Positions 21,625 through 54,421 of a stretch of DNA of 64,000 nucleotides are shown piece after piece (position 1 is the stretch's first letter; each line of letters begins with the position of its first letter). Position numbers and translations under genes: made by a program. The notes below the pieces were generated by a model. It was not told where the DNA came from. It worked only from the letters and a program-made list of their open reading frames with translations, and ran no database searches. The DNA is taken from positions 620,001-684,000 of the forward strand of contig JAEBUN010000007.1 in NCBI GenBank assembly GCA_023014365.1. Reading direction: 5' to 3'. Source of the stretch: Lepiota brunneoincarnata (taxonomy: Eukaryota; Basidiomycota; Agaricomycetes; Agaricales; Agaricaceae).

Positions 21625-21723
21625 GTTGTTAACAGCAGTCATTAACCACTCTCTGCCTTAACTTGGTGTATTCTCTCATTATCTCATTGAGTGTGATCTA
21701 CTAAGCTTTGCAAGGCCAACTGT
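21625..21723. other. short stretch of unidentified DNA
   Basis: About 100 bases between a C element and LINE-A copy 4 that match no other repeat I recognise in the window; no gene seen. It could be the original target sequence. Confidence 0.3.
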
Positions 21724-30619: not shown

Positions 30620-30935
30620 TTTTTTTTATTTTTTTTTATAATCATCAATTTATAATGTGGTGCCTGAATGCAGTCTGCATGCACTAGCTACATACAAGGC
30701 AACTAATACATGGTATAACTACCAGTAAAGGTAGGGAAAAAGGTCCTGCTGGCCTAAAAGGCTACACTCCATAAAGAAGGGCACATGAGTGAAGAATTCA
30801 CTGGCCCAACCCCAAAGGGGGGCAGGCCATGGCAGATGAGGGGTGGATAGGGCCTAGAGGTCCCCCCTCAAAGGGGGTTAGGGGTCAATTCCCCATAAAT
30901 CCCTACACTCTGCAGGCAAAGGCTTTAAGTGCAGG
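30620..30935 (-). repeat. LINE-B copy 2, 3' UTR and tail
   Basis: T-rich tail (30620-30638) then ATAATCATCAATTTATAATG, the complement of the LINE-B 3' end, and a UTR containing a CCCCCCTCAAAGGGGG arm pair (30864-30879) like that of LINE-A. The rest of this copy appears to continue at 54422, on the other side of the KDZ element. The join is inferred from orientation and order; no clean target duplication is visible. Confidence 0.6.
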
Positions 30936-30981
30936 TAGTTAACCTACAGTGTATTGAATGAGTGGGGCCAGCAAAGACATA

Positions 30982-33900
30982 CAGTCACTCACCACTCCTT
31001 TATACACTGAAACTTATTTTGCACACAGTGGGTACAAAGCTCAACGTATCCACTTCAAATTTTGTATATATGTAAATACACTTTGTCAAAATATAATTAC
31101 AGAATTACAGAATTTTTTGTCAAGTTTTGAATGCATAGTATCACTTCAAAATTTAAGCACAAAACAAGTCCTTTATACAGTGTGACGCCACATGACATTT
31201 GGTCACACTACCATCAAAACCCCTGTAAATCCTTCAGAAATATTTCAATTATCATCGTTGTTGCTCCCCTGATGCTTGTCATCACTGGAAAATGTATGAG
31301 TAATGTCAGAATTACTACTTGCAGCCTTTTCCTGAGGCTGGAAGAGGTTTTGAAAGCCACAATGCCTTGCAGATTGTGCAAGGGTAGATTTTGGGACTGG
31401 TTTTGGGAGTGGACCCAGTGGACCAGGATGGGGGAGGGGAGCCAAACCATTGTCCTTCCAATCCAACTTCCTTCCATACCTCCATATAAAGCTTGTAGTT
31501 CACTCTCTTCCAATTATTCTCCTTGATTCTCTTTGTCTCCTTTTCCTTCCACTCCTTTAACTTCTCTGAGTGATAAGCCCTAACTGTGTGCTTATTCTGC
31601 TTCTCCTCATCTTCCTGCTTCATCTCCTACTCTCTAGCCACAACTGCCTCAACAAACTCATCTCCAGTCAACAAACGAGGAACTCCACCCAAGAGTGCGC
31701 TGTGAGATGTCTTTGACTTGGCTTTCTTCTCCTTTGTGTGAAGTTGATTTTGCATGTGACCACAGTAGACATGCTGGAGGATGATGGCTGCCTGCTGGCC
31801 CTGTAGCTGGCCTTTGTGCTATGCTTCACATGATGCTGCATCCCATAATGCAGCCTGAAGAAGACTTTCCCATTCAGTTTGAGGTACAAACTGAAGAAGA
31901 TCAGTTCACTTCTTGACTGGTAACATAACAAATGGGTTGTACTCAGGGGGAGGAGTGTTGGAAGGAAGAGGGTCAGGAGCAAAGAGTGGATAGTTGATGT
32001 TGGTCGTGAGCCAAGCAAACATGTCAACAAGAGATTCAGGAACATCAAAGCTAACACCATGTTCATCCTCTGGGTCAGAATCATTGCTAACAAGTGGTAT
32101 AGAACTCTGAGCATCCACATTTTGCTTTTCAGCTAGCATTGTAATGGCGCTGGCAGTGTTGCAAATAGGAGTGCTGAATGGAAGGGGCATGGGTGCATTA
32201 CAAGAAGTTTCCAAGCTAGGCTGAAAGAGCTTGGAGTGAATAACTTGACGGTCAAGAGGAACAACCCCAGTTTTACAGAATGCAGTTTGGATATTCTCCC
32301 AAGTAAGAGCATGAATGTGAGCCTGACCATAGATAGATAGAAAATTTGACTTTGTAATCCTTTGGCCAGTATTTGCTTGGAACTTGTCATGCTCCTGCTG
32401 CCAGTAACACTTGAGAACACCAAAAATGGCAACATCGAGGCCCTGGTAGACATGCATGGAGTGTGATGGATAACAAAGGATGGAGATGTTGTGTTCCCAA
32501 GCATAGTTAAGGAAAGTGAAGGAATAGTGGGAATTGTGACCATCAAGCAGAATAACTTATTTGCGACCATTAGCCTGGGTTTGAGTGAATGTATCAAACT
32601 GCCCAAGCCACAAAGTACCCAGCTCTGAATCTGTCCACCCTTTCTTTGAGTAGCCAATACTAATGATAATTAAATCAGTAAAACTGTAATATTATGCAAA
32701 TAGAGTTAACTCACAATGCTGCAGCTGGGTTTTGCTGGTTCTAGTTGATATGGTAGCCATGACCCTTGAATATGACAGCAGGTACGATGCTGGTACTATT
32801 AGCACAAATAGTAACAATGATCATGATATTTTCACGACTACCATCACATTGCTGATATGGTGCTGGTTCACCCCTTTGTCTATAAACCTGCTCCCTTCCT
32901 CCTTCACCTGTCTATGGTCATATCAGTTAATTAACCAAAACTATTTGTGAGAGATATAATTTGTACCTGAATTCCTGTTTCATCAGCACCCCAAATACAA
33001 TCAGGGGAAACACCCTCAAGCTCTTTCTCCAGAAGATCAAACCAGAGGTGATGATTTGTTGGATTAACTGCCTTGGCTTGAACATTGTCAAGGGTCCTTG
33101 AGTATGTTAGCTTGAGTTGATCAGCATGGTGTTGAGCAAAGTGGCTGATCCAATTGGTACCAACACTATCCTCTGGAAAATCATCTCGCTGTGCATGGAC
33201 AATTGAATTAATGTGGTTCTCCAACCAGCCAGCTGTCAGTGGAAATCCTCAGTCAGTAGAATAGAGTGCAAATATAACCACTGCTATTTCTTCCTCATCA
33301 GTAAGCCACCATTTTGTAGTATTAAACTCCTGGATGCTCTGAATGCCTTTAGTATATTTCAGTATAATAATAACTGAATATACAAGTGAGCAATAATTAT
33401 CCTTTGCATGGTTTGCGACTGTGGCATGGTTAATCTTTACTTCCCTCCCTGTTGCAACTAGATGGGCAGCTGTAACCTCTTCTGCAATAACTCGATACCC
33501 CTTCCTGTGCTCTCCTGGCCCTAGATTTCTATCTTGCTCCATCAGATACATCTCAGCAGCTTTCTTCACCAGCATTTCCTTCTCCTCATTGAAAAGTCTC
33601 ATTTTCTCCTCTGAAATCCTGGATTTTGTGGCTTTGGAGGGCATTTTGAGTATGAGAGGCTTGTTTGACACTAGAGACAGTGTTGGGATGCTTGGGGGGG
33701 TTGATCTCAACAATGAGAGATGCTAGGGTATCCTATACAATATAAAATTAGATGACAGATTTGACTTATTAATAGATAAATTTGGAATATAAATAAAGCA
33801 CCCATATTTCGAGTTTTTGCAGTCATAAAATTGGTTTATATTGCTATTCTACTTGATACATTAGTTCTGCATCCGCCAGCAATACATATATACAGTCAGG

Positions 33901-34356
33901 CATCTTAGAGAGCAAAGGCAGGCTGGGGGCACTATGACAGACCCTGCAGGACAGGGATGTCACACTTTATGACAGCGATTGCCATCATCTTCCTCCTTAT
34001 TTCTAATTTTAGCAGTTTTTTGGAGTCTCATGCTCTTCCCCTCACCCAGACATAATATAACTGATATCACCAGATAGCCCTCATTCAGGGTGACACAATG
34101 ATGCCAAAATCATGTTGTAGAGTGGAGGATAGAATAAATAATGAGCAGATTACATATTTGTCATACTTTCCAATTTTGGAAATATGGTGATCTTAGATCG
34201 CTCCAACATATCAGCAGCAATTTTACATGTCAGACCTGGGCAGAACATTCCCAGGCATGTTCTAGAATTTTTTGAAGATTACTTGAAGCATATTTTAATA
34301 AGACAAAAGCCAGTGTATAAAGGAACGGTGGTGTATAAAGGAGTGGTGAGTGACTG
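30982..34356 (-). mobile_element. pogo/Fot-like transposon 1 (3375 bp)
   Basis: Inserted at TA in the left repeat of the KDZ element (TA at 30980-30981; the right copy reads TG at 34357-34358). The unoccupied sequence is visible in the right repeat near 54380-54400. Terminal inverted repeats are about 26 bp, beginning CAGTCACTCACCACTCC. One intron-containing transposase gene lies on the minus strand. Its nonsense codons show it is inactive. Confidence 0.88.
31315..33644 (-). pseudogene. pogo-like (DDE_1 superfamily) transposase 1, with introns
   Basis: Start ATG 33642-33644 (PSKATKSRISEEK). In order it has an N-terminal helix-turn-helix region, a CENP-B-like segment (HFAQHHADQLKLTYSRTLD), catalytic Asp in IWGADETGIQ, ENIMIIVTICANSTS, second Asp in VILLDGHNSHYS, then YPSHSMHVYQGLDVA and TGVVPLD. 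A charged, coiled-coil-like C-terminus runs to 31315. Introns are visible: one around 32880-32960 (behind ETGIQ, acceptor CCATAG) and one at about 32660-32710 (donor GTGAGT). Nonsense codons lie at 33249-33251, 32741-32743, 32557-32559, 31906-31908, 31819-31821 and 31627-31629; each could arise by C-to-T or G-to-A. Confidence 0.85.
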
Positions 34357-34914
34357 TGCATAAAACGAGTGAGTGGGGCCCAGCAGGCCTGCTGGGGGGG
34401 CCACCACACTATATAACTTTGCTCATGCATTTGGTAAGCACATTAAAGGGGCCTGTGTGATCCCAGGATCATGGGGGCATAGAATCCTGAGCTCAGGGGT
34501 GGGTTGTGGCAATTGCAGAGTGGTGGCATAGCATGGGACTAAATATGATTAATGTTACCATAAATTGAATGCTTACCAACAATTAAGTAATCATAGATAT
34601 TGACATGATGGAAGTGCTGAAAGGTATGAGGGGTGTAGGTGGCATAGGCAGCATGAGTGGCAAGCTCATTGCAGTGCTATAAAATGAATTAGCTTAATGG
34701 GATAAGGGAAGAGAGAGACTTGCAATCAATATGGCAAAGGCCAGCATGGAGAAGATGCATTGTGGTGGCAATGGAGGCAGTAATTTACACTCCCCCAGGT
34801 GTCCAAGTGAGTCCATGCAGATCCATGCATCTTTGTACAGACTGTGTACAGATCCATGCAAATCCGTGCAGATCCAGGCAGACTGAAATGAATTTGAGCC
34901 ACCAATAAAATACA

Positions 34915-34994
34915 TCCATTACTGGGATTTGAACCCAAGACCTTGATGAAATACAGGCAATAACAGTGATTATGACCACTATACCACAATTCCC
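34915..34994 (-). other. tRNA-like sequence (A and B boxes), probably not a working tRNA
   Basis: Minus strand: GGGAATTGTGGTATAGTGG... with A box TGGTATAGTGG (34976-34986) and B box GGTTCAAATCC (34925-34935), and a T-arm that can pair (TTGGG/CCCAG). The two ends do not form an acceptor stem, so it is a tRNA relic or a tRNA-derived repeat head inside the non-autonomous element. Confidence 0.4.
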
Positions 34995-35397
34995 TATCAA
35001 AATTTGATCACTAAGTCATACATTTACCACTTATGAACAGTGTAACTTACCTATTACCTATGTCATCAACTGCTGAAATACTGATTAGCTATATAAAAAA
35101 TATGTGGGATGGTGCCAATTTTAATGCAGATTCCAAATATATTACTCACATGACTCAGGGTAATTTAACTATTGAGAAAAATGCAAAGAACTCGAAAAAA
35201 TGTGGTGGATATAAGGAATACCATAAGAAAATTCTAAATAACTTGTGAAGGAGATGTTTGTAGCCTATGTAACTACCATATTCCTGGTTGGAATGAGATT
35301 CCGGATCCAATAGTATAATATTTCCTTTTTTTGGAAATTACATAAAATTCAAAAATGATGTCATTGGATTCACAATTTTATTCTGATCAAGAATATA

Positions 35398-38287
35398 CAG
35401 TGATCTGCTGTCATTTGGCACAGCAGATTGATTTTATTTTTTCCTGCTCGCATTTCGCCTCAGACCATAGAAAGAAATAGTCAAACATATACTAAATAGT
35501 GTTCTATGTAACATGGAGCCTTGTTAAAATGAACCATAGCATGAGAATTTGTGGAATTATTTTTTCTAAGACTTGAGGCCCAAAACAGCCAAAAACTGTC
35601 ATTTGGCACAGTGTGACAAAAGTGTGACACCTGCTTATCAAACTGCATCTTACCTATCGTGGTTATCCTCTGCTCCGTCTCCCTCACCAATTCCCATGTC
35701 CCACTCTACTAGAGCCTTGATTTCTGCTCTGGTGGGGCATTTTGGCTGCTTTGGGAGCTCCTTCTGTGGTACATTTTGCTTCAGGAGCTCCTCCCATTCC
35801 TTTTCATTGTCCCCTTTTGCCTTTTCCCACTGCAGTCTTGTTGCCTTCCATCGTACCTCAATGGCATCCTTCAGAGCTTGCTTCTGAGCCCTTTCATCTG
35901 CTTGTATCTTTTTCTCCCTCTCTTCCCGCTCCAGCCGCTCTGTCAACAACTCAATCTCCCTGGTAAATGATGGATCTATCAAGACCCTACCCTTCCCACT
36001 TGGAAACAAGAGTGTCCGGTCTTCCTTCTTCTTGTTCTCCTTTACATTTAAAGAATGGTTTTGCTGACACAGTGTAAGGTCCTGAATGACCATCTGGGCA
36101 TGATTTGCCTCAATGATTAGACCTCAAGCCTTGATCTGCTGTTGAGCACTCTTGAGGCTTGTCTCAAGCTCTGAGATGTGTTCAACGAGCTTGCTCCGAC
36201 CGAAATTACTGGCTCCAGGTGAGTTTCGAGTGTCGAGGAGACTCCAGTTGGGTTTAGGAAGATCGTGTGGATGCTCAATGATTGGATGAAGAATGGAATA
36301 GGAGGATTTAAATGGGCTATCCGAAACCAGGTATGATACTGAACTTGATGAGAGTGATTCTGACAGCATCCAAGCTTGTTTTCTAGGTGTAAAATCAGTC
36401 AGGCTTGCAGATCTGCATGCTGGAACTATTAGGTTTGGCCCTGGGGAGGTTATTGTTGATATCAAGGGGGGATTGCTGCAAAATACGGCCATCACTCACC
36501 GAATTGGTGATGGTTGCTGGACAGGAAAGGTTCCCTTTGTAGATTTTGGTATACTTGGTTGTATTTGTTGTTCAGAAATGATATTTGGATTGAAAGGATG
36601 AACACCCGTTGCCTTGAAAGCAGCTCGAATAGTATCTGGGGTGAATGCATACAAGTAAGCTGTCCCAAAAACACGAGTAAAGTCTGCCTTTGAAAGAGAA
36701 TTGTGGTTTTCCTTTTTGTATGAATTCAGTTCCTCCTTCCAAACTTCTTTCATCCGAGCAAAGCAGACCACATCCAACCCTTGAAGAGCATGGGTGCAGT
36801 GTGGTGGATATCCCAAGATCACGATGTTATTGTTGATGGCATAGTGTAGAAGTTCATGAGTGTAATGAGATTTATGGCCATCCAGAATGAGAATGCGAGT
36901 TGTCCCATTTGCCTTGTCTTTTGTTGGTGGATCAAAATGCAATTTAATCCAGTCAAGTGCAAGTTCACCATCTGTCCAACTGTTAGGTGAGTGTGCAATC
37001 CTTGGTAAAAATATTATATTAGTCACAGATCAAGATATTCCTATATTAATATTGACTTACGATGCATTCGCAACATTGTTTTGATTCCACTTTGCCATAA
37101 AATGTTTCCCCTTGAAAATTATCATAGGATGGAGAGCAGAACCATCTGCACAGATGGTCACCAGTACAGTAACATTTTCTCGGTTGGCCCCCCCCTGTTT
37201 ATGCTGTGTTTTTGTTCCCTGATGTCCCCATACCTGCTCCTTTCCTGAATGTGATCTTGTGAATCCACTTTCATCCATCCCATAGATATTCTCTGGCAAG
37301 ATTTGTTTATCAATTAAATTTGCCTTGATAAGTTCAAACCAGGCCTGTACAGCCTCTGGAGTGAGCGCACTTGCATGGACAGTATCTAGAGATTTACTCC
37401 AGTGAGTCTGGATGACGTCAGCATGACGATCCCTAAAACCATCAATCTAATGCTCTCCAAGTGGTTTGCATCTGTTTCCTTCAACTTCCTGCACAATCGC
37501 ATTGGCATAGTTCATGATTTGTTTCCCATTTAGGGGAAGCCCACAGTCAGCTGATTGAATAATAAAATCCACAAGAACTTGCTCCTTTGCAGGGCTGAGC
37601 CGCTGCAGTGAAGCAACATATTCTTCTTGAGTCCTCTCTCCATTTACATGCTGTGCGAGACTTCTGTATGGTACCTGGAATTTTTCTGCAAAAAAGCGAA
37701 GGCCTGGAGGCTTCTTTAATGTCTCCTTTTCTTGAATATATGCTGCTGCTGCATCATTAAGGTTCTGGTTCAGTTCTGCCTGAGCCTTCTTCTTTTTGTT
37801 GGCAATGGACTCTGCATGGAACACCATAGTACCAGTGCAAAAGATGAGTAACGAGAAGGAGATGGGAGGGATGTACAAATTTTTGAGTTTATGAGCATAC
37901 TTCCACCTGTGTTGAATGTCACACTCTCAAAAAGGCCATCTATCGCTAGCTCCTGAGCTTGCAGCCCTACCAAAATTGACCTACAGATAGCTTGAATGCA
38001 TATCTACAGAATGGGCCAAGACTTGCACAGAAATATGTGCTTTTTGTAGTTTGAGTGACATTTGATCTCGCCTCAAAAGTTGTTTGGGCATATTTTGAGA
38101 GACTTTTGGAGGGAATCATGGCATGCCTCCCTCAAATTTGCTTCAATCACCTTAGTTTTAGGTGAAACAGTAGACCTCTATGTAGTGTATTTATCATAAT
38201 TTTATCAGGATATTACGCTGAAGAGATGAGCACTAATCTTAGATTGTGCCAAATGACGGTGGTGTGCCAAATGACGGCAGATCACTG
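35398..38287 (-). mobile_element. pogo/Fot-like transposon 2 (2890 bp)
   Basis: Flanked by TA (35396-35397 and 38288-38289). Terminal inverted repeats start CAGTGATCTGC and contain GTCATTTGGCAC. The word TGTCATTTGGCAC recurs inside both ends (35597-35609; 38248-38276 twice in inverse form), making subterminal repeats. Transposase on the minus strand. It is nested in the 34778-38569 element, which is nested in the KDZ left repeat. Confidence 0.9.
35650..37827 (-). pseudogene. pogo-like (DDE_1 superfamily) transposase 2, with one intron
   Basis: ATG at 37825-37827. Order: basic N-terminus and psq-type helix-turn-helix (FFAEKFQVPYRSLAQHV), CENP-B-like domain (HADVIQTHWSKSLDTVHA), catalytic Asp in IYGMDESGF, ENVTVLVTICADGS, intron of 60 nt (37001-37060; donor GTAAGT, acceptor AAG), WTDGELALDW, second Asp in RILILDGHKSHY, YPPHCTHALQGLDVV, TGVHPFNP. 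A Ser-rich linker and a long charged helix (LLTERLEREEREKK) end at 35650. In-frame stops are TAG 37447, TGA 36496 and TGA 36124; otherwise the frame is kept, so three C:G-to-T:A changes may account for its loss. Confidence 0.87.
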
Positions 38288-38920
38288 TACTACTCACATG
38301 TTCTAAAAGAATTTCCTTCACAAGTTATTCACATTTTTCTGTGAATCATAAATTCAATTAACTCGGATCCCTGCAAACTGGATTTTACTCAGACTAGTCT
38401 GTATGGGTCTGCACAAATCTGTGCAAAATTTGCACAGATCCATGCAAAAAATGTAATGAATGTTAAGATTTTCTATGCAAAAGTCTATGTGGATCCATGC
38501 AGATCCATGTAAAAATCAGCATGGATCCATATGGACCACTTGGAATACATGGGGGAGTGTAAAGACCTCCAATGGAGGTGGCAAATGCCTTGCTGCAGAT
38601 GTGGATAAGCACATAGTCAACCTTTTATAATTTGTTAATGGCACAAATAATTATTGTAAATAGTTGGGAATGGTCTGAGGACATGTAGGCACCTACCTCC
38701 CTGCTGCAGCAGTGGCAAGTGGTAGCAGCAATATTTTAATTGTGCTACTTGCACTACAGCAAGACAAAGGGAAGGTAGGCATTGATATATGGCTTATAAT
38801 TTGTTAATGGCACAAATAATTATTGTAAATGATTGGGAATAGTCAGAGGACATGTGGATACCCTCTCCCTTGCCACAGCACTGGCAAGCAGCACTGGCAA
38901 TATTTTAACTGTGCTGCTCC

Positions 38921-39577
38921 CATCTCAATAGGTATGAGATGTAACAGCTGTGGTACATTTATGCATGCCAGGAAGGCATCAGATGCATTTAGATACTGAG
39001 TGGGGCACCTCAACCATCTTTGTCAAAAGTTGAGTGGTATTTCTGCACTACATATTAGTATGAAAAATATGATAGTCATTGAGCATATCTGGACTCATCA
39101 AAGGAATGTTCCCTTTGGCTCTTGTGCCAAGTCATGGTCATTTTCACCAGATATGGATATATTTTATTTCATAAGACATATGTTGTTACCAGGCCTCTTG
39201 ATGATTCTACAGACATCTATCTGAGTGGGATTATAGGTGTCATAGTCTTAAACAATACCCCAAAATATGACTGTACCTGAGATAATCCTCCCAATGTTAT
39301 TTGAAAAATGACATATGGAGAATATATGTTTATGTCAGAAATTGGATAAATAAATTCATTTTTTTTTGGAGAATTTGTGGTGCATAAACCACATTCCAAA
39401 CACTTGTGCCAGGACTTAGGCAGTATTCTATATGGTGTTACATATATTGGACATCCACTTTAACTAATTGGAAGCCCATGATTGCACCAAGACATGAACA
39501 AGTACAATTAGTGTTCATGAGCAACTCAACTTCAAGGCTTATCAATATCTGAGCAGTACTCAGTCAAAGTATGTCAA
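38921..39577. other. no gene seen; KDZ 3' flank
   Basis: AT-rich DNA between the left inverted repeat and the end of the KDZ transposase. Short open frames show no known motif. It may hold the 3' UTR of the transposase. Confidence 0.4.
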
Positions 39578-42500
39578 CTACTTGCTTATATCTTGTTCAA
39601 ATAGTTTTTCCTGTTCAATCCACACTGTCTGCAGATTCAGGAAGTACCTGACTGTCCATTGCATTTCATATTGAACCATGATAAATTCTTCCTCCCACCA
39701 GTGTTTCTGTGCCTGAGCATGAAGCCAATGTACCTGTTGAACTTGGGATGGCATGTCAGCATTCTGCTCTTGGGAATGACCAGGTTGTGTTTGGAAAATT
39801 ATGAACTTATATTCCTTCAGTGCATCAGGTGAAGAGTTATTGTCTCCAGCAAAATGAGATTGCCATATCCATGAAAGGTGGACTGCAGTTGATCCAGGCT
39901 CATTTGTGTTGAGTAGGGCCATGCTGCACTGTACATTGGTTCTGGTCAAAGGTGGAAACCAGGCCAACACCAAGGTGTCGGCACACAAATGAATCATTGC
40001 CACCTGGCATTTTGAATATACACAGCAATGAAATGCAATTCGATTATTGAGAGTAATGATGGCTATGTGGCTATGCAGTTGAATTGATTTGCAGCTGGCA
40101 ACATGTAGTATGTGTGAGTATTGAAACAATTTTTCAGCAATTGCAGTGCAAAGGCTTTCCAGATGTTGCAGGGCTTGGGATATATGCAAGGATAATTCCA
40201 ATGAGTATAGCTTTGTGTCAGGGGATTAAAAGGTGAATGGCATGCTAATTGGGTGCCTTTCAAGTGGGGGGACTGCATGCGCTGATAAGTCTAGTACAGT
40301 TGGGGTTGCCAGCTGTGCTGCAGTGATATCAGCCTTGTCATCCAAGGCATCAAATACATCCCAGAAATCATTGTCATTGGTGGCAAATATATTTGCTTGC
40401 CTTATACCCAGATGCCATTGCCTTGCCTCCAGCTTGGCAAACTCATCTGTCAGTGCCTGCTACAGTCATTTTGCAAGGTCCTCCTGTGCCAGGGTCAGTG
40501 GCCCTCAAAGGATAGCCTTAAGCTCAACCCTGTCATGTCTGTTAGCAGATATATTATCTCCAACATTAATCTGAGAAATACAAACTGGTGTTCTTCTGCA
40601 TCCATTGCTGACTGGATCCACTCCTCTGTTGGGGTGTGTTCTGCTGCTGGGCATAAAGTTACCTGGCCCCCATTGCCACCTTGTGCAGCCAGGATATCCA
40701 TTGCTTTTGGCAATGCCATTCAGCAGGCTTTGGCATGCATAATTGCCACTGTCCATTGCTCCATGTCATGATCATTTATACCTTTACTCAACAAACTGAA
40801 ATATTCTGTTGTGTCTTTAACCATTGCTTTTGCCTGGGTATATCATGCACATAATGCCATTGCTGTCCAACAGAGGTGTAAGGCATGCATGGTATCAGCA
40901 GACTGGCAAGATAGACTTACTAATGTTGAGCATTTTCTTGTGGTTTGAATCACTGGCATGATCATCAAGTGTCTTGGCACGGTTTGCTAAGGTTGCTGTA
41001 CAAACAGTTGGTGAAATGGAATTTAAGGATAACCATAAAGATTCTAGAATCTCACTGGCCACTCCACTGCTGCCAGGGATAAAGGATGGCGCATACTGGA
41101 AAAAGCACTCTTGTCTGTGGCCATGCACATGAAAGAGACCAATGGCTCAGTCAACAACCAGATCATGCGGCAGATAATGGCCAATCCTTTTCTGGAGATG
41201 TACTGAGTATTGGCAGGCAATGTCATAAATCAACATGGCACCTTGCTCCAGATTGAGGTGGGTTGTTGCCAAAGATTGCAAGAAGACCCAGTCTATATTC
41301 TTTTGCTGCTCTCCCTTGAACAAGTCAGCAATTGCATTTGGTGCAAAGCATCCATACCAAGCACAAGCTATAGCCCCTATCCTGGTAACATCACAGGCTT
41401 TGGATCCTGCCATTGCAAGTTCAATAGCACAAAAGTAGTTCTCACATGGTGCCTTCTGTGTTCAATGCATGAATAAATGTTTTTGAAGATATGGAAGTAG
41501 TGCCAGTAGACATACTGTGGACATCTTAACTGCATCTCTCAGGAAGCTATGATACCAAGCATGTGTGGAAAACATACCATCTCCTTCAGACAGCCAAATA
41601 TTGGAAGTGCCATGGTTTTGCCAAATGTGGTCTGCCTTGAAATTGCCATTGGCAATGAAGAAACACTGGTAAGCCCATTTCCCAAGTGGAATCAAAATGA
41701 CATGCAGGACAAAAAGCACTGATCTTGACCAACCTGTTTGAATCATCCTTCCAATCTGGAGGCAGATTAATACCAGGCTGGGGGCATGCTGGACAAAAAT
41801 TTACAAGTGACCCAGTACTTGTTGAATTTCCTTTCAATGAACTCTGCCTATACCCTGCCCACTTTCACTTTTTTAGCCAGTACCACAACCATGCCATTCA
41901 CAGCAGTTCCTGATACAAGTTTGGCACTTTTCCTGGTGCCATTGGGGTAGTAAGCCAGTGAAGCTTTTGGAAGTATTGATATGCTGAGGCTTTGCATTCC
42001 AAATTCTTGGGTCAAAAATTGTCAAGAACATCTATTGTGAACATGGTGTGGTATTATGTGAATGTTGCTGGTACTAGATGGCAATACATCAAATCAGCAA
42101 TAACCTCTTCTCTCCAATGGCAGGTGCAAGTCACCAAGGCAATACAGTGTATACCATTTGTGTGTACAAGCCACACATATTAATTGCTGAGGGCATTAGT
42201 CTGAGGGACAAAGTTCTATTCATTACCAGCTGATTCCTGCAGCTCTCTGGGAAACTCCCCTATATGTGTTTCATCTGTTCCCATTGTGACATTGTCTGAG
42301 CCCCATAACCCTTCATCAATGCTGGTGTCAGAATGGGTATTATTGAGTGGCAAAGTATTGCTGTCTGGTGTGGTATCATGAGCTGGTGTCCAACTCATGG
42401 ATGGGACAGCATTTCTGCCTGCCAGTCCCACACACAATGTATCTTGCTTGGCATGATCCTTCAGCTGCTGACAAACCTCGAGCATGTTGATCTGATGTTT

Positions 42501-42995
42501 CAGTATTAGACACAGGCCTCCTCCATCATTGTGTGGCACCATCATATATGTCCCAACCTCTCACATACTAGCTGAGGAAAAATAATGCCCAGTCCACTGC
42601 TCTAGCCTGTGCAGAAGAACACCAACATGGGAGTGCCTCATGCACATTCAGCAAAGCACCTTTCCTCCAAAACAATCTCAGCATTGCCAAATTGCCTGTC
42701 ACTCCTTGGCACAATTGGAACACTTGCCATTGCCAGGCAATGCTTTGTGTGCAAGCAGTGCTGCCAGTAGACCATTGGCATGGTTGACAAACTCTTCCAT
42801 CCAGTGTTGTTGTAGCTCATATCACCATTATCACAGCACAGAAAGCTACCATCCATTGTTACATGATCATTATCCCTCCTACATTTGGGACCCAGGTCAT
42901 CTGTTATTCCTTGTGTGGCTGTTTCAGCAGATGTTTCAGCAGAGAGTGGAACTTTATTTCCTTGCTAATCCTTTCCTGTTTGTTTTGGGCCTGAC
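39578..42995 (-). pseudogene. KDZ-family transposase
   Basis: A cysteine-rich N-terminal cluster is encoded at about 42600-42740 (KCSNC, then C.DCFGG, LC.MCMRHSH and LHRLEQWTGHYF). Next come FCPACPQPGINLPPDW (41780-41800), FIANGNFK and SEGDGMFSTHAWYH (41550-41670), GSKACDVTRIGAIACAWYG (41350-41410), LFKGEQQKNIDW, LIYDIACQYSV and, at the C-terminus, VHWLHAQAQKHWWEEE and QYEMQWTVRYFLN before the stop at 39578. This series matches the KDZ transposases of fungi, which carry an RNase H-fold DDE/DDD core. The gene is broken by many stops and shifts; in the zinc cluster alone four TGA codons stand where Arg is expected. It would mobilise the enclosing inverted-repeat element. Confidence 0.85.
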
Positions 42996-43300
42996 CCAGA
43001 CTGGAGTGGGACCTTAATTGTAGTCCCCACCAGTCCATGCAGTATCTCCATGGTTATTCCTTTGTATGCCCAAAATTCAGCCATTCCATCAGCAGCCTGA
43101 ATGTCCCATCCATCCTGTTTCCCTCACTTGCATTCCTCCGATGTTTTTTGAGGCACAACCAAGTAATCCATGGGATCTGAAGAAGGCAATCTTGTTGGTA
43201 TTAGGCAAAGGCAAGTGCACATGTGCTCAGCATGGCAGTAAAAATCAACTTTGGTCCCTTGTGGCCTTTGTTCTTACTGTACCTGATCACCATGCAGGCT

Positions 43301-44519
43301 GTCAAGAAAGCAAAGAAGCCTAGAGCCAACTGCCAATATCCCCCTGCAGAATAGGGAGTCATTGAAAAATACAAAGAGAATTACTGCAAACAAACAACAC
43401 TAGAACAGTGAGGGATTATTTTCAGATCACAAATTCTTTCTCATATCTTCAACTACTGGACACATAATGGAGAGATCCCCTTGGCAGAAGATGAGATGGA
43501 AAGGCATGTCAAGGTATGCAGTAATGGAATACTTTTCTGGTGAATGGTTCCAATGACAGTTGAACAGGCATTGGGGAAGTAGCTTGCAAACAATTGGTGT
43601 CCTTATGCCTCCAACAGAACAATAAAACCTAGGATCACAATGAACCAAAATCAAGCTGTCTGGAAGACACAGAAGGCTGCAGTTGAAGATGAGATGAAAG
43701 CAATCTTGAACATCAATGAACTCAGACTGGGATCAAAAGAATACTTCCAAACTCATACCAAGGTGGCCAAGCATGTGTATGAATGCATGGACAAATCAGA
43801 AAAGGGGGCAATCACAGCATATGTCACCTCATACAAGGCCAATGGCAATGAGCCTGAGATAAGAAGATAGTATGTACTAGAGATTACAGTTCAATGACCT
43901 CAACTTATGATTATCTAGGATTGCGACTGCACAAGCCAAATGGCATATGAAGGAATGGTCAAGGAAATGCTGGTTGCAGATGGGAGTTGTCACTATGACA
44001 TTTTTTGGATTTCTGGACACAGATGGACAGATAATGATCAGCATGTGAGTGGCCAACATTTGTCAGAAATTCTTTGCCTGATAAGAGGAACTGTGTCAGT
44101 TTTGATGAGATGGCAGTAACTATGGGTGTCACAGCAGAAAGATTTATGAAGGTGTACAAGGGGCCAGTGGAAAGAATGCAAAATGAGTTTGCATCATATG
44201 TTGGGGGACTGCATTGGCAGAAGGACCAGTTGCCACAGTTGCCAGGAAATGCAGCAATCTTTGCAATACCATCATTCAAACTGACTAGGAGTGAATTTCT
44301 CATTATATCATTAACAACTGTCACGATCAATGAATTGAAGAAGGATATGCTTGAGGAGATGGTGTGGACCTATCTCACAACCCACTACAGTATGGTTTTC
44401 ATCCCCTTCTCACATGCCAGAAAGCTCGTGGAGCCATGGAGAATTGGCTTCAGCACAGCAGGCACAGCATGTTCCATTCAAAATGCTGGAGAAATATCAG
44501 CCAAAGTTGGTACAACATA
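43301..44519 (+). pseudogene. unknown passenger gene of the KDZ element
   Basis: I do not recognise a named family. Plus-strand pieces join through GT-AG introns: 43301-43870 (EKYKENYC, HIFNYWTHNGEIP, AVWKTQKAAVEDEM), intron about 43873-43920 (donor GTATGT, acceptor TATCTAG), exon about 43921-44044 (ATAQAKWHMKEW, MTFFGFLDTDGQIM), a further probable intron, then 44080-44519 (CVSFDEMAVTMGV, VYKGPVERMQNEF). The protein is hydrophilic and Lys/Glu-rich with no membrane segment. Similar unknown proteins are, from memory, common in agaricomycete transposon-rich DNA. A stop at about 43351 and others make it a pseudogene. It is divergently placed to the transposase. Confidence 0.5.
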
Positions 44520-45400
44520 AATTTATCCCTCAGAATGTCAAGATATGTGACCCATGGAATATGCCAAAGCTTCAAATTCAGCGATTCTTGAACACATTAT
44601 TGCATGGCAAATGAATCATGGTGCCAAAAATGCATTCCATTTCCAAGCCTATCACTAAAATGGAGAATTTCATCTGGCAAACTATCCAGGGACAATAAAC
44701 TCATTAACACTTGATAATCGGAACATTGAGTCAAGGCAATATGGAAGGCACAATGCAGCAAAGTCTGATTTCCCTGGTCTATTAAGTGGCAATCAGACTT
44801 TACAGGAATCAGCAGCAGATGACAGCTAGCTTATTGTACCAGATTGGAATCGCTCCCTTGCATCAGTTGGGAACCAGCTGGCAGGAACCCTGGATTCCGG
44901 CATGGTCTTGATCAATCAGCCATCAATAAATATGTTGCTGGCAAATGGGTTCCCTCCAATAATTCCCTCAAATGGTCCAAATAGTGGTGACCCAACTTAT
45001 GCTGTGCCAAGGTTGCAGTCACAATGTACCCTCCCTGGGGTCACTCAAGGCCACCCAACAAGCAGCTTGCCAGGTTGCAGGTCCCATTCATTACTTGCCA
45101 TTGACCTGGCTTTGATGCCAGCCATTGACATTGACCTAGGTATGATCATCACAGTACATACCCAGAAGACCTACTAAAAACCCACCATCTCGATAGCCCC
45201 AACCCAGCAACAGCACTCCCAGCAACAACAACACAATAAGGGATGTAGTGGCAGGTTATATCAGTGGTAAAGTAACACCTTGCTAGTTGGCAGATGAGTG
45301 AGAGATGAAGCAATATAATTTGAAAGTCCAGTCCAAAAAAACATAAATGCCAAGAAAGATACACAATAATAGGTAATAAATACAATGTGATAGCTAAATC
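44520..45400. other. no clear gene
   Basis: Short plus-strand frames (44902-45177) rich in Pro and Ser follow the unknown gene and may be its degraded C-terminus. A TTATTGTGTTGTTG-like low-complexity stretch lies near 45220. Nothing else is recognisable. Confidence 0.3.
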
Positions 45401-45999
45401 TCAAGATCTAGCTTTTTGTTGTGCCCAGTCATCATTGCTGCCTGATGCCTTATGTTTCCTCACCTGGGGGGTATATACCCTTGTGTCCAATGATGGTACT
45501 GGTGAGCTGCTTAGGTGTGGACTGTGCCTCAAAGGCAGGAGGGATGCCGGGGAGTTGGCCAAATCAACATTGCTGTGTTCACAGTTGGCTTGTGACTGGG
45601 AGCAAGTCTGGGGATGGAAGGGAGTGAGAGTGCATGGCTCCAACAGTGTAGCTTGAGGGATAACAATGTCCTCCTGTGAATTTGCCAGGGTAGGAGCAAT
45701 TAATTGCAACCCTGGGGTAATGGCACTGGGTACAAGAGGGGGGAGTAAGGCATTGGCATGGGGTATTTGGCTGGCAAGGTGTAGATTGGGAAGGGCAGCA
45801 GTGGGTGACAATGGTGCAATGGCATTAGTTGGAGAAGGTGGGAGTGTTGGTGGAGGCAAATTTGGGGGAATGGCCAGTGTGGCTACTAGTGGTACTGGGG
45901 ATGATGACAAGGTGGTCAAAGGAGCTTGCTGGCAGCATTGGTGCAGCTGGCACAGTGCTGACAATGTTATGCAGCATGGCAGCACCCATGGCAGTAATA

Positions 46000-47590
46000 C
46001 AGTAGGTCAATAACTGTCCCAATGTTTTCACCACTTGGAAAGGTCAGCTAATAGTGGACCAAGGTGATTACGTACATACTTGGGAAAATAGCGAATGGTA
46101 ATATAGCATATTGAGATCCCGAATCCGTTTAAATCACGTGATTTGTCCGAGAGGTAATGGAGTAATTAATAATTTAAAATATTAACTCATTGGGACAGTT
46201 TTTTGACCCTCTATCATTTTCCTAATTGATACATTGTATAGCCTCCTTTTGCCTTGATAACTATCTTGAGCCTTCTGGTCATGCTTGCTATAGGTTTTTG
46301 ACACTTTTCTGCAGCAATCCTATCCCACTTTACCACCAACCTGTTCCATAATTCATGTATTCCCTCAGGTGGTTTCTCATATCCCTTCAACCAGTCCTTC
46401 AGGTATATCCAGAGGTGTTCAATGGAATTGGGGTCAGGGGATTGTGCAAGCTATAGTAGAATTTGCATATTGTCATCTTAAAACCACTCTATTGCCCTTT
46501 TAGACTTGTATTTTGGGTCATTGTCCTACTAGAATATCTACTCCTCCTCCTCTATTTCTAAAGTTTCAAAGTTATTTACCATCCCACACTCCAAAATCTC
46601 ATAGTACTGCTCTATATCTATGATCCTCTCAGCTTCTATTAGCATTCCTACTCCTTTCCACTGCATAGCCTGTCATACCATAATGTTACCACTGCATTCA
46701 TGCTTAACAGTAGGAATAATAGTTTTGTCTAAGAGTCCTTCCCCCTTATACATCTTCCCATATGACCCAAGCTTGTTGATTTTTGTTTCATCTGTCCATA
46801 ATATCCATTTTCAATCTTCCATAGTCCAATCCTTGTGCTCATGGGCAATTTGAAGTGAGCAATTCAGTGTTGCTTCTTAAGAAGAGGTCATTTGGTCCTA
46901 ATAGCAGACCAGAAATTGTTCTTCTTGAGCATATTTCAGATTGTTTGAAGTGTGACAGGAGTGGGGAGGATAGAGGAGATGAATTGGGTAGCTTGAACAG
47001 CATTGTCCAGCTTCCCAGTAGTGATCTAATAAATTATTGATTGTTTATTCTAAGAAGAAAGCATGGAGGGTTGTCCTCCTTTGTTGTTTTCCTTATCTTG
47101 ATCAACTTCTTTCTTGATCCACTCAATAGTACTATCACCTGGACTAGTCTGGACTGAGTTTATTACAGGGAATAGCCATTCTGAAGAAGAAAAATGACTT
47201 GAGAGTACTGGGTAGAAGATATAGCTTCTATAATGTAATAGTAAGAAGAAAGGGTGGTTGAAGTGATTTCAATATGATCATGTGATATAGAAGAGGTCAC
47301 ATAACAATTTGTGTTATCCCCACATTTGGTTTGGTATTGATTTGGCCTGTCCAAAACTAGATTTTAGGAAAATGACAGAGGGTCAAAAAATTGTCCCAAT
47401 GAGTTAATATTTTAAATGATTAATTAATCCATTACTTCTCGGACAAATCATGTGATTTTAACGGAGTCAGGATCTCAATATGCTATATTATCATTGTCTA
47501 TTTTCCCAAGTATTGACATAATCACCTTGGTCCACTATTAGCTGATCTTTCCAAATGGTGAAAACATTGGGACAGTTTTTTGACCCACTG
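46000..47590 (-). mobile_element. Tc1/mariner-like transposon 2 (1591 bp), decayed
   Basis: TA duplications at 45998-45999 and 47591-47592. Long terminal repeats of about 210 bp start CAGTGGGTCAAAAAACTGTC (right end) and CAGTAGGTCAATAACTGTCC (left end). Each has an inverted copy of the same motif at its inner boundary (CATTGGGACAGTTTTTTGAC at 46190 and its complement at 47371). The transposase between them is heavily mutated. Confidence 0.88.
46215..47100 (-). pseudogene. Tc1-like transposase 2 relic
   Basis: Minus-strand relic. The C-terminal VIKAKGGYTMYQ (near 46230-46260) parallels the terminal AVLKAKGGYSKY of Tc1-like 1. The second catalytic region survives as DNDPKYK near 46500-46530, directly preceded by two TAG codons where the family has Gln-Gln, and the third as a degraded NPNSIEHLW-like segment near 46410-46440. 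WWTDETKI-like sequence (46770-46800) marks the first Asp. Stops and shifts are too many for function. Confidence 0.75.
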
Positions 47591-48591
47591 TAGATGATGA
47601 TGCTGAGGGAACAACAAGCAAGGTGGGCATTGATCCTGGAAAGCTTTCGCCAGTAGTGGTCACCTCACTGGCACAGGATGTCAACATTTGGAGTTTGGCT
47701 TCAGATACTGCCAGTGGCAGTATGGCCAATGCAAGTGTCAATTCAGATGTTGGCCAAGGCAATGCCATGGTGGTAGGCTCATCTTGTGCCGACAAGATTG
47801 TCACATGGTTGCTGGTGAGATCAATGGGTGAAAGTGCCTGTGGTGGCAGGGTTGCCACATTCCTGGTATGATTGTCTTCCGCTGGCAATGTGCTTGATGG
47901 ACTAGCATCAGTATCCATCACTCTGGATCCATTTGAAACTGTAGCTGGTGAGCATGCAGGCTCAGTTGCACTCATCTGGCCACCAGTACCTGTTACTAAG
48001 GTTTCAACCTTTTGTGACAGGCATTTAACCAAGGTTTCCAAGTTCATGACTCAGCTCTCCAGATCCAGTATGAGTGCTGGTGTTCCAGCAACAATCCAGC
48101 TTTGGATCTCTTCAAGCTGAGTGCAGAACACATTCATGCTTTCTTCCATCTTGAAAATCCATGCAGCCTAGAATAGGGATTTCCCTTCAGTATGGCTAAA
48201 ATGTTTGACCAGCCACTGGTCAAAATAATCCAAGCATTCTTGGACCTAACCCATGGCTTGAACAGATGTTGTCAGGGCATGAAAATGAAGCACAGCACCA
48301 GAATAATAAAAGCTTACCCTCTTCATATCCCTTGTTATCCTCCAGCCCCCACTTGAAATTTGGCATCAGGTAGCCAATTGGTGGGCAATTGGCACCATCA
48401 CCTTGCATTGCTGTGGCTTCAGCTGGGGCTGGGGCACTTGCCTCGTTGATAGTCCTTGTTAGGGGAATGTAGGTGCACTGGAACCAAGTTGATATTTGGG
48501 TGCCAATTGCAATCAGCACATGTGCTACTTGAGTACAATAATGGTCTGTGCACAGACCAGGTAGCAAACACTACTTAGACTACCAGATATA

Positions 48592-50192: not shown

Positions 50193-51818
50193 TAACATGT
50201 GCAAACAATATACAACAATATTAGAAATGTAATTGTACATGGGATTGGGCTCAGGGATGGGGGCAGCCAAAGGTTGAGATCAGGCTTGGGCATCAGGCAT
50301 CAGCTAGAGAGGTCAAGCCCAGACACCCAACCACAGACCCCTAGACATACCTTGTGTAAGGGGGTGCATACTAGTCCCCTTACAGTCCTGGCCTTACCTT
50401 TTGTATTGGCCCTTAATGCCTTTGCCACAGCTTTGGATAATGTGACCTTGGCAGCTTGCTGACTTGCTGCAGCCTTCACCTCATCCTCTGAGTTGTTCCA
50501 GATTAATTGGTCATCATCGTCGGTATTGATATCAACCCATTCTGTGCCCTTTTCCTCTTTGATCCCCCTTTGCTGTTTAAGTGGTTGCTGTGGCACAGAT
50601 GTTGATAATTGCATCTGAAAATTCCTGCACCTAGTGCCCATGTAATTTGTGCATTGGACCTTCTTGGCCTGCAATTACAACATGCACCCCCACTGGCATC
50701 AATTTGACATGGCACCTTGTTCACCACACATTGCTGGCATGTTGTGTCAAATAGCTGGCCAGTTGGCTGTGATATGTAACAGGGCCAGCTATCTTGTGGC
50801 ACTGCCAGTCTACATGGCTGCTTGCTTGATTGCCATGGGCCATCCATTTCCACATCTATAACTGCCTGGTGGTGCAGCACAGCCCTTCATTTGCCTTTGT
50901 CATGTGGTGGAAGGGGTGATGGTGATTCCGAAGGCTTGTACAAGTTGGATGTCAAGCTGCCTGTGTCAGCTGACAATACAGTTATTGGTGGTCTTGATAC
51001 TGCAGCTTGATGTACTTGGCCTGCTGCCAAAGTTTCCAGCATTTCCAATGTCAGCAACCTGACATGCCATCCTGACATTTCAGGAATTGCTCCTGTTGGT
51101 GCTCTGACCAGCTGCAAAGCACTTCATGTTTCCAGCACTTCACTCTGCTTGCTGGCTTCTTTGTACCCCATTTCCACACTTGCTGCTTTTTCCAGTACTG
51201 TTGGTCCTGGAAATGTTACTTCTTTCAGTCCTCCAACTTGTTCTGCCTGATTTTTTGCATATGTGGCTAAGTGAATCCTATCCACCACAGAAACAATGCA
51301 TTGGCACATACCACTTGGCCAGCACTCTTCTTTGCTGCCTTCTTGTCATATTTTGCAAGTACTTTTAGTTGATCCATAATAAAAGTTGGTTCATTGCCTT
51401 GTTGATGCCAGGCAACAATAAATTCAAGGAGGAATCAATGCTTCTTGAATATGGCATGAATTGCTGGCTCATCACTCTTCGTATGTACAAATGTGTTCTG
51501 CTGTATGCAGCTCACCAATTGATTGGCCATATCACAATTCAAGCATGAAATACATACCATTTCCTCCAGGTATGTTTCCATCATTTCCCTAACCCAGCTG
51601 TTATATAGGGCCTGCCAGACATTGCTCTCATACTTTTCTAAGGCCAAAGTGATTTCCTTCATGGTGGGTGCAGACATTAAACAGGGCTTTGATGATAAAT
51701 GTTTGATCACCCAATGTGTATGTTGTGACAGGCTGAGGAATATGCAAGGGAAGCAAAGCATCATTTGGATGCATGCAAAAAAATTCCCAATGCTGGACAT
51801 GTGATCAGTCAGGAACAC

Positions 51819-53499
51819 AATGCTTACTAATCACCCAACTTCCATAAAATTGCCTTATATTATACAGATATAGCCACAATTCCAACAATCTCTCTTGTTC
51901 TGTTTGAGGCTTCCTGCATTACTATCATTCATGAATCCTCTCCCACCTGTCAATACTGAACCAGTTCACACAGTATCACAATCAAAACATCTTGCAAACA
52001 ATAATATGCAAGATCTTGTGCCTGACTATATGAATAATACTACTAAGCTTGCTCACAAAAATGTTGAGATGCAACAACTATTTGGGCTTCAGGCCATTAA
52101 ACCAATGGTATGTCATTATTACATTCAGGACTGCTACATAGCATTGCAGTTCCATCACTACACTTGGATTGTGCCAATCACACAGCAATGCCTGCATTGC
52201 TGCCAATAATGCCTCTGCCCCTGCCAGCAATGCATCGGCACAAAGGAGAGCCACTGCTGCCAGCATCCACCAAATGGCTGAATGCTACCACACCCACACC
52301 ATCCCAGTAGCAACCCATCCCCACTGCCTGCACTCTGGGCTTCATCTAGCTGAATGTTTGTGTGTTAGCTGGTATCAAAAGAAGATCTGCCGCATGGACT
52401 AATTGGCCATGGCAACATAATGGCTCCTACCTTGCCAGTAAGCCACCTGTCCTTACTCAACTTCATCAGAACCTTGACTTGCCAGGTGTTGGTTTTTCCA
52501 GAGCCTCTCAGAGCATGAGCTCTTTGCCAGACATGCCAAAGTCAAAGCTCTCCAACAGCACCTCAGCCTGAGTTACAAGGATGCAGCACATCAGCTCTAC
52601 CACTCAGAAATGCAAAGACTTGGTGCCCAGGACCAAGCTTACAAGAGCTTACTCAGCTTATGCCAGGATGCTGATAAAGTTATTGAAGAAGACATCACAC
52701 AGAAGATCAAAAATATTGACAACAGGCAATAATACTATGTTGCTGCATTCCCCACTTCTGATGCTGAACTCTAGCCACATAATTACTTCTGTTATGTAAC
52801 CAAATTGTAATATAAATTCAGCACATTCCATGGCAATCTCACACTATGCATTAATCATACAACTGCTGCACTAACAATATGAGTGCTGCTCATTTCAGTT
52901 ACATCAAATTTACATTCCCTACATGTTTGATGTACACATCATTTGCTCAATGGGCACCCACCACAGTTCATTGGTGGTACAACATCCTGTGTGATAGACA
53001 GACACCAGCAGTCCAGAGATGGTCTGCCGATAATATGGGAGACTTTCACTCCATCCTGGGGTAATACAGCCAGCCTCAGCACAGCTCACATTGGTCACAA
53101 TGTATTGTTTCTATCCTCAAGTCATGGAGGCTGTATCTGGTATTCCTGCTGACCTTGCCAACTCATCTTCTGGCATGTGTATCATGTCCAGCATTTGATT
53201 TTTCAATATTTGTGGCATTCACCAATTTATCATACTTGTCACTTTGCCACATACACTCTACTATGGATGGATGGCTATACCTATGTTGTGCCACCCCACC
53301 CCTCCCAGATTGCTGCTTTCCACTCCCTGACCTGGGATTTCTAGTACCCATGATCCTGACCTCTCAGGACCTTTTTGACCATGGGATAAGACCCAGACAT
53401 GAAGATTTATGGTGAGCTAGCAGAGCCAGCAGGCCCACTGGCTCCCATTCACTTGATACAGTGTTTGCATTTGCTGGTCCCACTTGCTCAATACACTGT
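51819..53499. other. no gene recognised; KDZ interior
   Basis: Short plus-strand frames (51895-52209, 52581-52799, 52879-53415) show no known motif, and none is supported by good splice sites that I can follow. The stretch may contain decayed exons of another passenger gene. Near 53440-53515 an inner copy of the element-end motif appears (AATACACTGTAGGTTGACTA). Confidence 0.35.
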
Positions 53500-54421
53500 A
53501 GGTTGACTATGTGCATTCCCAACCATTTACAATAATTATTTGTGCCATTAACAAATTATAAGCCATATATCAATGCCTACCTTCCCTTTGGCTTGCTGTA
53601 GTGCAAGCAGCACAAGTAAAATATTGCCAGTGCTACTTACTGCTGCTGTGGCAAGGAGGCAGGTGCCTACATGCCCTCTGACCATTCCCAAATATTTACA
53701 ATGATTATCTGTGCCACTAATGAATTATAAGCTATATATCAATGCCTATCTTCCCTTTGGCTTGCTGTAGTGCAAGCAGCACAATTTAAATATTGCCAGT
53801 GCCACTTGCCACTGCTGTGGCAAGGGGGCAGGTACCCACATGCCCTCTGACCATTCATAACCATTTACAATGATTATTTGTGCCATTAACAAATTATAAA
53901 AGGTTGACTATGTGCTTACCCACATCTGCAGCAAGGCATTTGCCACCTCCATTGCCACCACAATGCATCTTCTCCATGCTGGCCTTTGCCTCCCTTTGCC
54001 ATATTGATTGCAAGTCTCTCTCTTTCCTTATCCCATTAAGCTGATTCATTTTATGGTGCTGCAATGAGCTTGCCACTCATGCTGCCTATGCCACCTACAC
54101 CCCTCATACCTTTTGGCACTTCCATCATGTCAATATCTATGATTACTTAATTGTTGGTAAGCATTCAATCCATGGCAACATTAATCATATTTAGTCCCAT
54201 GCCATGCTGCCACTCTGCAATTGCCACAACCCACCCCTGAGCTCAGGATTCTATGCCCCCATGATCCTGGGATCACACAGGCCCCTCTAATGTGCTTACC
54301 AAATGCATGAGCAAAGTTATATAGTGTGGTGGCCCCCCCAGCAGGCCTGCTAGGCCCCACTTGCTTGATACTATGTATGTCTTCACTAGCCCCACTCAAT
54401 TGATACACTATAGGTTGACTA
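53500..54421 (-). repeat. right long terminal inverted repeat of the KDZ element
   Basis: Uninterrupted inverted counterpart of 30936-38920. It contains two tandem units of about 165 bp, plus a partial third, each with TTTGGCTTGCTGTAGTGCAA (53590, 53755), and the block 53900-54420 that is split by insertions on the left side. It provides the empty-site sequence for pogo-like 1 and for the 9-bp-duplication element. Confidence 0.8.

What the first reader, a model, noticed from the sequence alone, without database searches (positions are those of the whole stretch)
30936..54421. A ~23.5-kb KDZ transposon with ~0.9-kb terminal inverted repeats and passenger genes
Seen: the sequence from 30936 inward, with later insertions removed, is the ordered reverse complement of 54421 inward, over about 850-900 bases. 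A KDZ transposase lies inside. Known: KDZ elements of basidiomycetes can be large and carry extra genes. Inference: the two or more unknown genes and the inverted repeats move as one unit. Such long repeats around a KDZ core are, to my knowledge, not routinely described, partly because nested insertions hide them.
Basis: partly seen in the sequence, partly recalled or inferred. Interest (0 to 1): 0.85.

Follow-up and report, generated by a model that had tools for sequence, protein, structure and literature searches.

The report
Nested KDZ transposon wreck in mushroom
The stretch is most likely not one intact jumping element but the decayed remains of two related mushroom transposons, one lodged inside the other; relatives elsewhere in the same genome show that this transposon family does have long inverted ends and carries extra genes of unknown function.

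Summary
The inverted arms are real: 30932 inward is collinear with the reverse complement of 54425 inward (to 53606) once two nested insertions are skipped. But 30932-54425 is probably not one 23.5-kb KDZ transposon. The KDZ core belongs to a second element. Its right end lies inside, at 53513, against the outer right arm's 169-bp repeats. Its left 3.4 kb, including the left end and about the last 40 transposase codons, is missing at a junction (39603/39609) that no other listed copy spans. The outer ends lack a target duplication; about 274 bp of the host repeat is missing instead. The outer arms hold no CpG, the KDZ core few, the youngest insert many.

Nine loci carry 403-537-bp inverted ends around a KDZ gene; six of the nine have perfect 7-bp target duplications. 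They end in CA...TG and carry conserved extra sequence with third-codon-position bias and no Pfam family over cut-off. Seven-bp duplications and CA...TG ends match published Kyakuja elements, which were described as lacking inverted repeats. So the family is a long-TIR variant of a known kind, present in the window only as a broken composite.

The parts
30620..30931 (+). left flank: part of a high-copy host repeat R
   Evidence: 40 other genome matches, all ending at 30924-30933; same strand as the right flank in 10 R copies, 233-274 bp apart
30932..30983 (+). outer element, left-type terminus CAGGTAG...
   Evidence: 88% to the left end of the C20 element, 83% to the outer and 81% to the inner right end
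30982..34356 (.). nested Tc1-like insertion 1 (DDE_3 remnant about 32595-32458)
   Evidence: CpG o/e 0.14
34372..34777 (+). outer left arm, second piece
   Evidence: 94% to 54361-53946
34778..38569 (-). nested insertion 2 with DDE_1 transposase (37176-36616), 9-bp duplication CAATGGAGG
   Evidence: CpG o/e 0.27
38570..38918 (+). outer left arm, third piece with 169-bp repeats
   Evidence: 87% to 53954-53606
38919..39603 (+). inner part of the outer left side
   Evidence: elsewhere in the palindromic copy C79 (84%, both arms) plus one 61-bp match on C49; zero CpG
39603..39609 (.). breakpoint: outer element to truncated KDZ element
   Evidence: no other of the 61 listed matches extends left of 39605; cuts the transposase C-terminus
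39609..42812 (-). KDZ transposase gene, 3'-truncated and with in-frame stops; CxC2 42185-41946, KDZ 41671-40943
42822..45904 (+). conserved passenger block i (coding evidence at 43205-43351, 43583-43867, 44038-44517)
45998..47592 (.). nested Tc1-like insertion with about 229-bp inverted repeats
   Evidence: a copy also lies at the KDZ gene of C9
47699..48444 (-). conserved passenger sequence (region of the C23 239-aa and 432-aa ORFs)
   Evidence: 72% to C23
48590..50194 (-). nested Tc1/mariner element with an open 363-aa frame
   Evidence: 21-bp inverted ends; 21 places 95-99% alike over its last ~195 bp; CpG o/e 0.44
50387..52813 (-). conserved passenger block ii (432-aa ORF with a cysteine cluster in C23)
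53155..53513 (+). right terminal repeat and right end of the inner KDZ element
   Evidence: 87% to C23 right end; same end motif in other copies with different flanks
53514..54425 (+). outer right arm: 169-bp repeats 53514-53899, then terminal part, right-type end ...TATGTG
54426..55122 (+). right flank: same host repeat R

Best explanation
Shown: 30932-54425 contains parts of two related KDZ-superfamily elements. An outer element, of which both ends survive, sits in one copy of a high-copy repeat. A KDZ-coding element of a family whose compact copies are 14-17 kb with inverted ends of up to 537 bp lies with its right end (53513) directly against the 169-bp repeats of the outer right arm, and its left 3.4 kb is gone. 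Inferred: the KDZ element inserted into the outer right arm, and a deletion or recombination then fused outer left-side sequence (39603) to the inside of its transposase gene (39609). The older layers are heavily CpG-depleted, and Tc1-like and DDE_1 elements landed later. Family members elsewhere probably move by cut-and-paste between CA...TG ends, giving 7-bp duplications and taking the passenger genes along; for the window copy, movement as a unit is not shown.
For: Position 53513 is the terminus in other copies with unrelated flanks. Nine loci have both arms around a KDZ gene, and 6 of 9 have perfect 7-bp duplications. The window lacks the left part that those copies have (1.5 kb compared; 3.4 kb to the end read in C20). 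About the last 40-45 residues of the transposase lie beyond the junction in the C23 arrangement. No other listed match spans the junctions. CpG count is 0 in the outer arms (1667 bp) and 0 in 38919-39603 (685 bp), against 24 in 9703 bp of the inner element and 34 in 1605 bp of Tc1. Both flanks lie on one strand of the same repeat, 233-274 bp apart in 10 copies.
Against: No empty site of the outer element without the inner one was found, so the order of the two insertions rests on the 169-bp repeat phase and the CpG layers. The CpG step is modest (about 5.8 expected at the inner rate, 0 seen; my arithmetic, not corrected for the lower GC of 38919-39603). The left mate of the inner element's duplication is lost, so its insertion cannot be proved by a duplication. 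Three of the nine family loci (C20, C41, C25) and C47 also lack a duplication. The leftmost 52 bp is nearly as like the inner as the outer right end. Junction searches scored capped candidate lists.
Confidence: 0.82

Rival explanations
1. One reading: one 23.5-kb KDZ transposon whose own termini are the 0.9-kb arms.
For: Arms are collinear and of matching left and right type; both flanks come from one repeat copy; arms 76-79% like the outer ones surround KDZ genes of a more distant subfamily, at C5 with a 7-bp duplication.
Against: Another right end at 53513 inside; transposase cut at 39609; no second copy of the composite listed; no target duplication; different CpG levels.
Confidence: 0.08
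2. A variant of the best explanation for how the fusion arose: two elements stood about 274 bp apart in one repeat copy, and one recombination between them removed the inner halves and the 274 bp together, giving a chimera with the left end of one and the right end of the other.
For: Explains in one step the missing 274 bp, the absent duplication and the 39603/39609 junction.
Against: Needs two insertions into one repeat copy; not distinguishable here from an end-adjacent deletion plus an internal deletion.
Confidence: 0.35
3. Composite transposition: the inner transposase acted on the outer left end and an outer right end, so that the chimera was made by aberrant transposition and can still be moved in trans.
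For: Inner-type and outer terminal ~110 bp are 70-77% alike and share the end motif; elements with such ends but no KDZ match have 7-bp duplications (C44, C35).
Against: No copy of the composite listed elsewhere; the target shows a loss, not a duplication.
Confidence: 0.1

Closest known systems
Kyakuja transposons (Kyakuja-1_LB, -2_LB; PMC12730594, abstract, outline and passages seen)
   Same: KDZ transposase, 7-bp target duplications, 5'-CA..TG-3' ends, mushroom host, extra gene cargo
   Different: Those are reported to have no terminal inverted repeats and to carry TET/JBP; here inverted repeats of up to 537 bp and no TET/JBP domain found in the stretches scanned
Cryptococcus KDZ1, KDZ2, KDZ3 (PMC12810828, passages seen)
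   Same: KDZ transposase with a CxC cysteine cluster, large size (about 9-11 kb), true inverted repeats
   Different: 139-241-bp repeats, CxC1, duplications of 8 bp (KDZ1) or 4-8 bp (KDZ2, KDZ3); here up to 537 bp, CxC2, 7 bp, 14-17 kb compact copies
Zisupton (8-bp duplications; from an introduction passage of PMC12730594)
   Same: Same KDZ superfamily
   Different: 8-bp duplications against 7 bp here
Pleurotus KDZ genes preceded by CxC2 (PMC7641404, passages seen)
   Same: CxC2 next to KDZ in intact copies
   Different: No ends or duplications described in the passages seen

Membership tests
KDZ superfamily | KDZ transposase domain PF18758 | tested here: met
   E 4.5e-30, 105.4 bits, cut-off 26.6
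KDZ superfamily | associated CxC cysteine cluster | tested here: met
   PF18803 CxC2, E 1.5e-14
Kyakuja | CA..TG ends | tested here: met
   window ends 30932/54425 and 9 of 9 family loci
Kyakuja | 7-bp target duplication | tested here: met
   for the family: 6 of 9 loci; 9 of 13 non-window elements with both ends read, 7 distinct sites; NOT met by the window copy
Kyakuja | no terminal inverted repeats (as described for two Laccaria families) | tested here: not met
   inverted arms of 403-537 bp
Kyakuja, TET-positive kind | TET/JBP gene inside | tested here: not met
   none in the window frames scanned (38900-53398 six frames; 30900-38950 minus frames only) or in the scanned parts of C23/C20; 18 Tet_JBP matches elsewhere in the genome, 16 over the cut-off
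Kyakuja | transposase groups with Kyakuja in a tree | not tested
   no named Kyakuja reference sequences at hand
30932-54425 as one mobile unit | flanking target duplication | tested here: not met
   TTAAGTG against TATGAGT; about 274 bp of target missing
30932-54425 as one mobile unit | further copies with the same junctions | tested here: not met
   none listed in G000 (capped candidate lists)

The most novel reading that the evidence does not exclude
The genome harbours a lineage of Kyakuja-type transposons that are true multi-gene machines: half-kilobase inverted ends and at least two conserved partner genes with no recognised domain (one with a cysteine cluster) that take part in transposition or in escaping methylation, as is proposed for TET/JBP in other Kyakuja, and that also mobilise 18-20-kb relatives lacking a detectable KDZ gene.
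Probability: 0.3. Interest if true: 0.6.

Novelty: new variant of a known kind. Interest (0 to 1): 0.42.

Why it matters
Complete structures of fungal KDZ elements are thinly described, and the two Kyakuja families characterised in the paper I saw were said to have no inverted repeats. A family with complete ends, 7-bp duplications and conserved unknown genes gives defined substrates and candidate partner genes. The window is also a clear case of nested same-superfamily ends that look like one giant transposon, a trap for annotators, and its CpG layers read as a relative clock.

Tried and rejected
Rejected: one intact 23.5-kb unit (see rivals). Rejected: outer arms as chance or as unrelated dispersed repeats; both edges lie on one strand of one repeat and are of matching left and right type. 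Rejected: passenger ORFs as TET/JBP; no such domain in the frames scanned. Rejected: the Tc1, DDE_1 and 45998-47592 ORFs as cargo; they are nested insertions. Tried without result: homologues of passenger ii and of a passenger i query, none at the cut-offs; Pfam on the passenger frames gave only hits below the curated cut-off. Structure prediction was not tried. Arms that I did not count among the nine pairs: C22, C31, C26, C28, C86 (two right ends), C15, C39, C9 (three places), C25:411 kb, C32 (three places), C1:3401 and 3953 kb, C46, C13, C84, C51 and the window. Before the flank count I dropped the window itself and six matches to the transposon end, and the window itself and one match of C11.
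Full report
Setting. The window is C69:620001-684000 of an unnamed 55.6-Mb, 95-contig genome. Its KDZ protein has 162 relatives at E <= 0.001, of which 120 were listed; the named ones are Agaricomycetes (Lactifluus, Amanita, Phlegmacium and others), many with the same CxC2 + KDZ layout. Several contigs look like second haplotypes: C2 and C23, C44 and C35, C47 and C57, and C20 and C26 share element sites or flanks.

Observation. Self-comparison confirms the ordered inverted arms: 30936-30983, 34372-34777 and 38570-38918 against 54421-54374, 54361-53946 and 53954-53606, above 200 shuffles. The gaps in the left arm are insertions: about 30982-34356 with ends CAGTCACTCACC..., and 34778-38569 with a 9-bp duplication and a DDE_1 domain. 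The exact outer ends are CAGGTAG... at 30932 and ...TATGTG at 54425.

The family. A search with the 537-bp end of the C20 copy gave 48 matches; 40 of 92 candidates were scored. Nine loci hold both arms facing each other with a KDZ gene between (KDZ positions): C23 (14,398 bp), C2 (15,028), C14 (15,513), C20 (15,595), C41 (16,375), C1 (16,701), C34 (20,113), C6 (28,370) and C25 (28,443). The right arms of C25 and C41 match over 403 and 408 bp, the other arms over the full length or nearly so. Left ends read CAGGTAGTCAACC and right ends CACATAGTCAACC (outside to inside). Perfect 7-bp duplications flank 6 of the 9: C23, C2 (same site as C23), C6, C14, C1 and C34; C20, C41 and C25 have none. Read by eye, the related elements C44 and C35 (one site, GACCAAT) and C5 (CAGGAGA; 41 kb) also have them and C47 has not. 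That makes 9 of 13 elements with both ends read, at 7 distinct sites. The arms of C23 are 95% alike over the 257 bp compared, those of C20 93% over 195 bp.

Passenger genes. Block i (window 42822-45904) is present, in part at C25, in 9 of the 9 loci, and block ii (50387-52813) in 8 of 9 in the list, where C25 did not appear (only 40 of 467 candidates were scored). Between window and C23, seven passenger ORFs were compared. The third codon position has the highest difference rate in all seven: clearly in the 432-aa ORF (0.197, 0.207, 0.303), the 239-aa ORF (0.217, 0.175, 0.361) and the 164-aa ORF (0.147, 0.105, 0.215), only marginally in 5220-5471 and 10188-10451; five of the seven show frame-shifting gaps. 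Of five ORFs across the KDZ gene, three show the third-position excess and two do not (their frame may not be the gene's). Of two control readings one had no third-position excess and the other a mixed pattern over only 122 bases. This is fair, not strong, evidence of coding. No Pfam family reached its cut-off in them and two protein searches found nothing.

Why the window is a composite. First, 53513 is the right end of the family: copies match up to it and then diverge into different flanks, while in the window it is followed by the 169-bp repeats of the outer right arm, whose unit runs on uninterrupted at the matching place of the left arm. Second, copies of the KDZ gene share at least 1.5 kb to the left of 39609, and in C20 their left end lies 3.4 kb away; the window has instead 38919-39603, found elsewhere in the palindromic element C79 and, as one 61-bp match, on C49. 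Third, full-length relatives place about the last 40-45 residues of the transposase beyond that junction, so the junction lies inside the gene. The window's KDZ domain also has two in-frame stop codons; one is shared by 9 of 10 copies compared and may lie in an intron, the other by 7 of 10, so most family copies looked at may be damaged as well, while the C46 domain is open. Fourth, no other listed match spans either junction (candidate lists capped in the first two). Fifth, CpG content is layered: 0 in the arms, in 38919-39603 and in the flanks; o/e 0.04-0.05 in the inner element; 0.14 in the first and third insertions; 0.27 in the DDE_1 insertion; 0.44 in Tc1. At the inner rate about 5.8 CpG would be expected in the 2352 bp of the outer layer (my arithmetic, not corrected for GC).

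The outer insertion. Right-flank copies begin at 54426-54428 (34 matches) and left-flank copies end at 30924-30933 (40 matches). In the two lists taken together (34 right, 39 left places) 12 pairs lie within 3 kb. Ten are on the same strand with a gap of 270-274 bp (nine) or 233 bp (one); two are on opposite strands. So both outer ends sit in one repeat copy from which about 274 bp is missing, and there is no 7-bp duplication. An end-adjacent deletion or recombination between two neighbouring elements would do this; I cannot tell which.

Outer family. Its closest arms (C20:41 kb and C26:201 kb, 90-98%; C21:520 kb, 84%; C44 and C35, 80%) have no KDZ match nearby (37 matches in all; a strongly decayed gene could be missed). 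More distant arms (76-79%) at C5 and C47/C57 do surround KDZ genes of another subfamily (about 68% in DNA). What the outer element once held is therefore open.

Literature. Passages and outline of PMC12730594 give Kyakuja 7-bp duplications and CA..TG ends but no inverted repeats. Passages of PMC12810828 give Cryptococcus KDZ1-3 with 139-241-bp repeats. Passages of PMC8290104 say that KDZ end motifs of Marasmius are in a supplement, which I did not see. Passages of PMC7641404 link CxC2 to KDZ, and of PMC12510652 report KDZ insertions at mating loci. The listings of searches showed no Kyakuja with half-kilobase repeats; the library holds only openly licensed papers, and I read no more than passages.

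Verdict.

Noticed in passing
genome C86:37401-54567: Two right-type arms of the family face outward about 17 kb apart, each next to passenger block ii sequence: a palindromic derivative with two right ends.
   Followed up: partly
L021/L023 (C79:1398.7-1401.2 kb): Palindromic element whose arms share the window's 38625-39603 sequence and end on one side in a family-type right terminus.
   Followed up: partly
C5:275496-316571: A 41-kb interval with matching element ends and a perfect 7-bp duplication CAGGAGA around a KDZ gene.
   Followed up: partly
window 34778-38569: Element with a DDE_1 (pogo-type, recalled) transposase but a 9-bp rather than a TA duplication.
   Followed up: no
window 48590-50194: Apparently young Tc1/mariner element with an open 363-aa transposase; 21 genome places are 95-99% alike over its last ~195 bp.
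   Followed up: partly
window 1-30000: Dense cluster of mutually inverted and direct repeats (e.g. 11767-13859 against 21723-23816, 90%), with higher GC and CpG than the window as a whole.
   Followed up: no
genome C23:642964 and C2:1204748: TET/JBP matches about 7.5 kb outside the family element at the same site on both contigs; 18 Tet_JBP matches in the genome, 16 over the cut-off.
   Followed up: no
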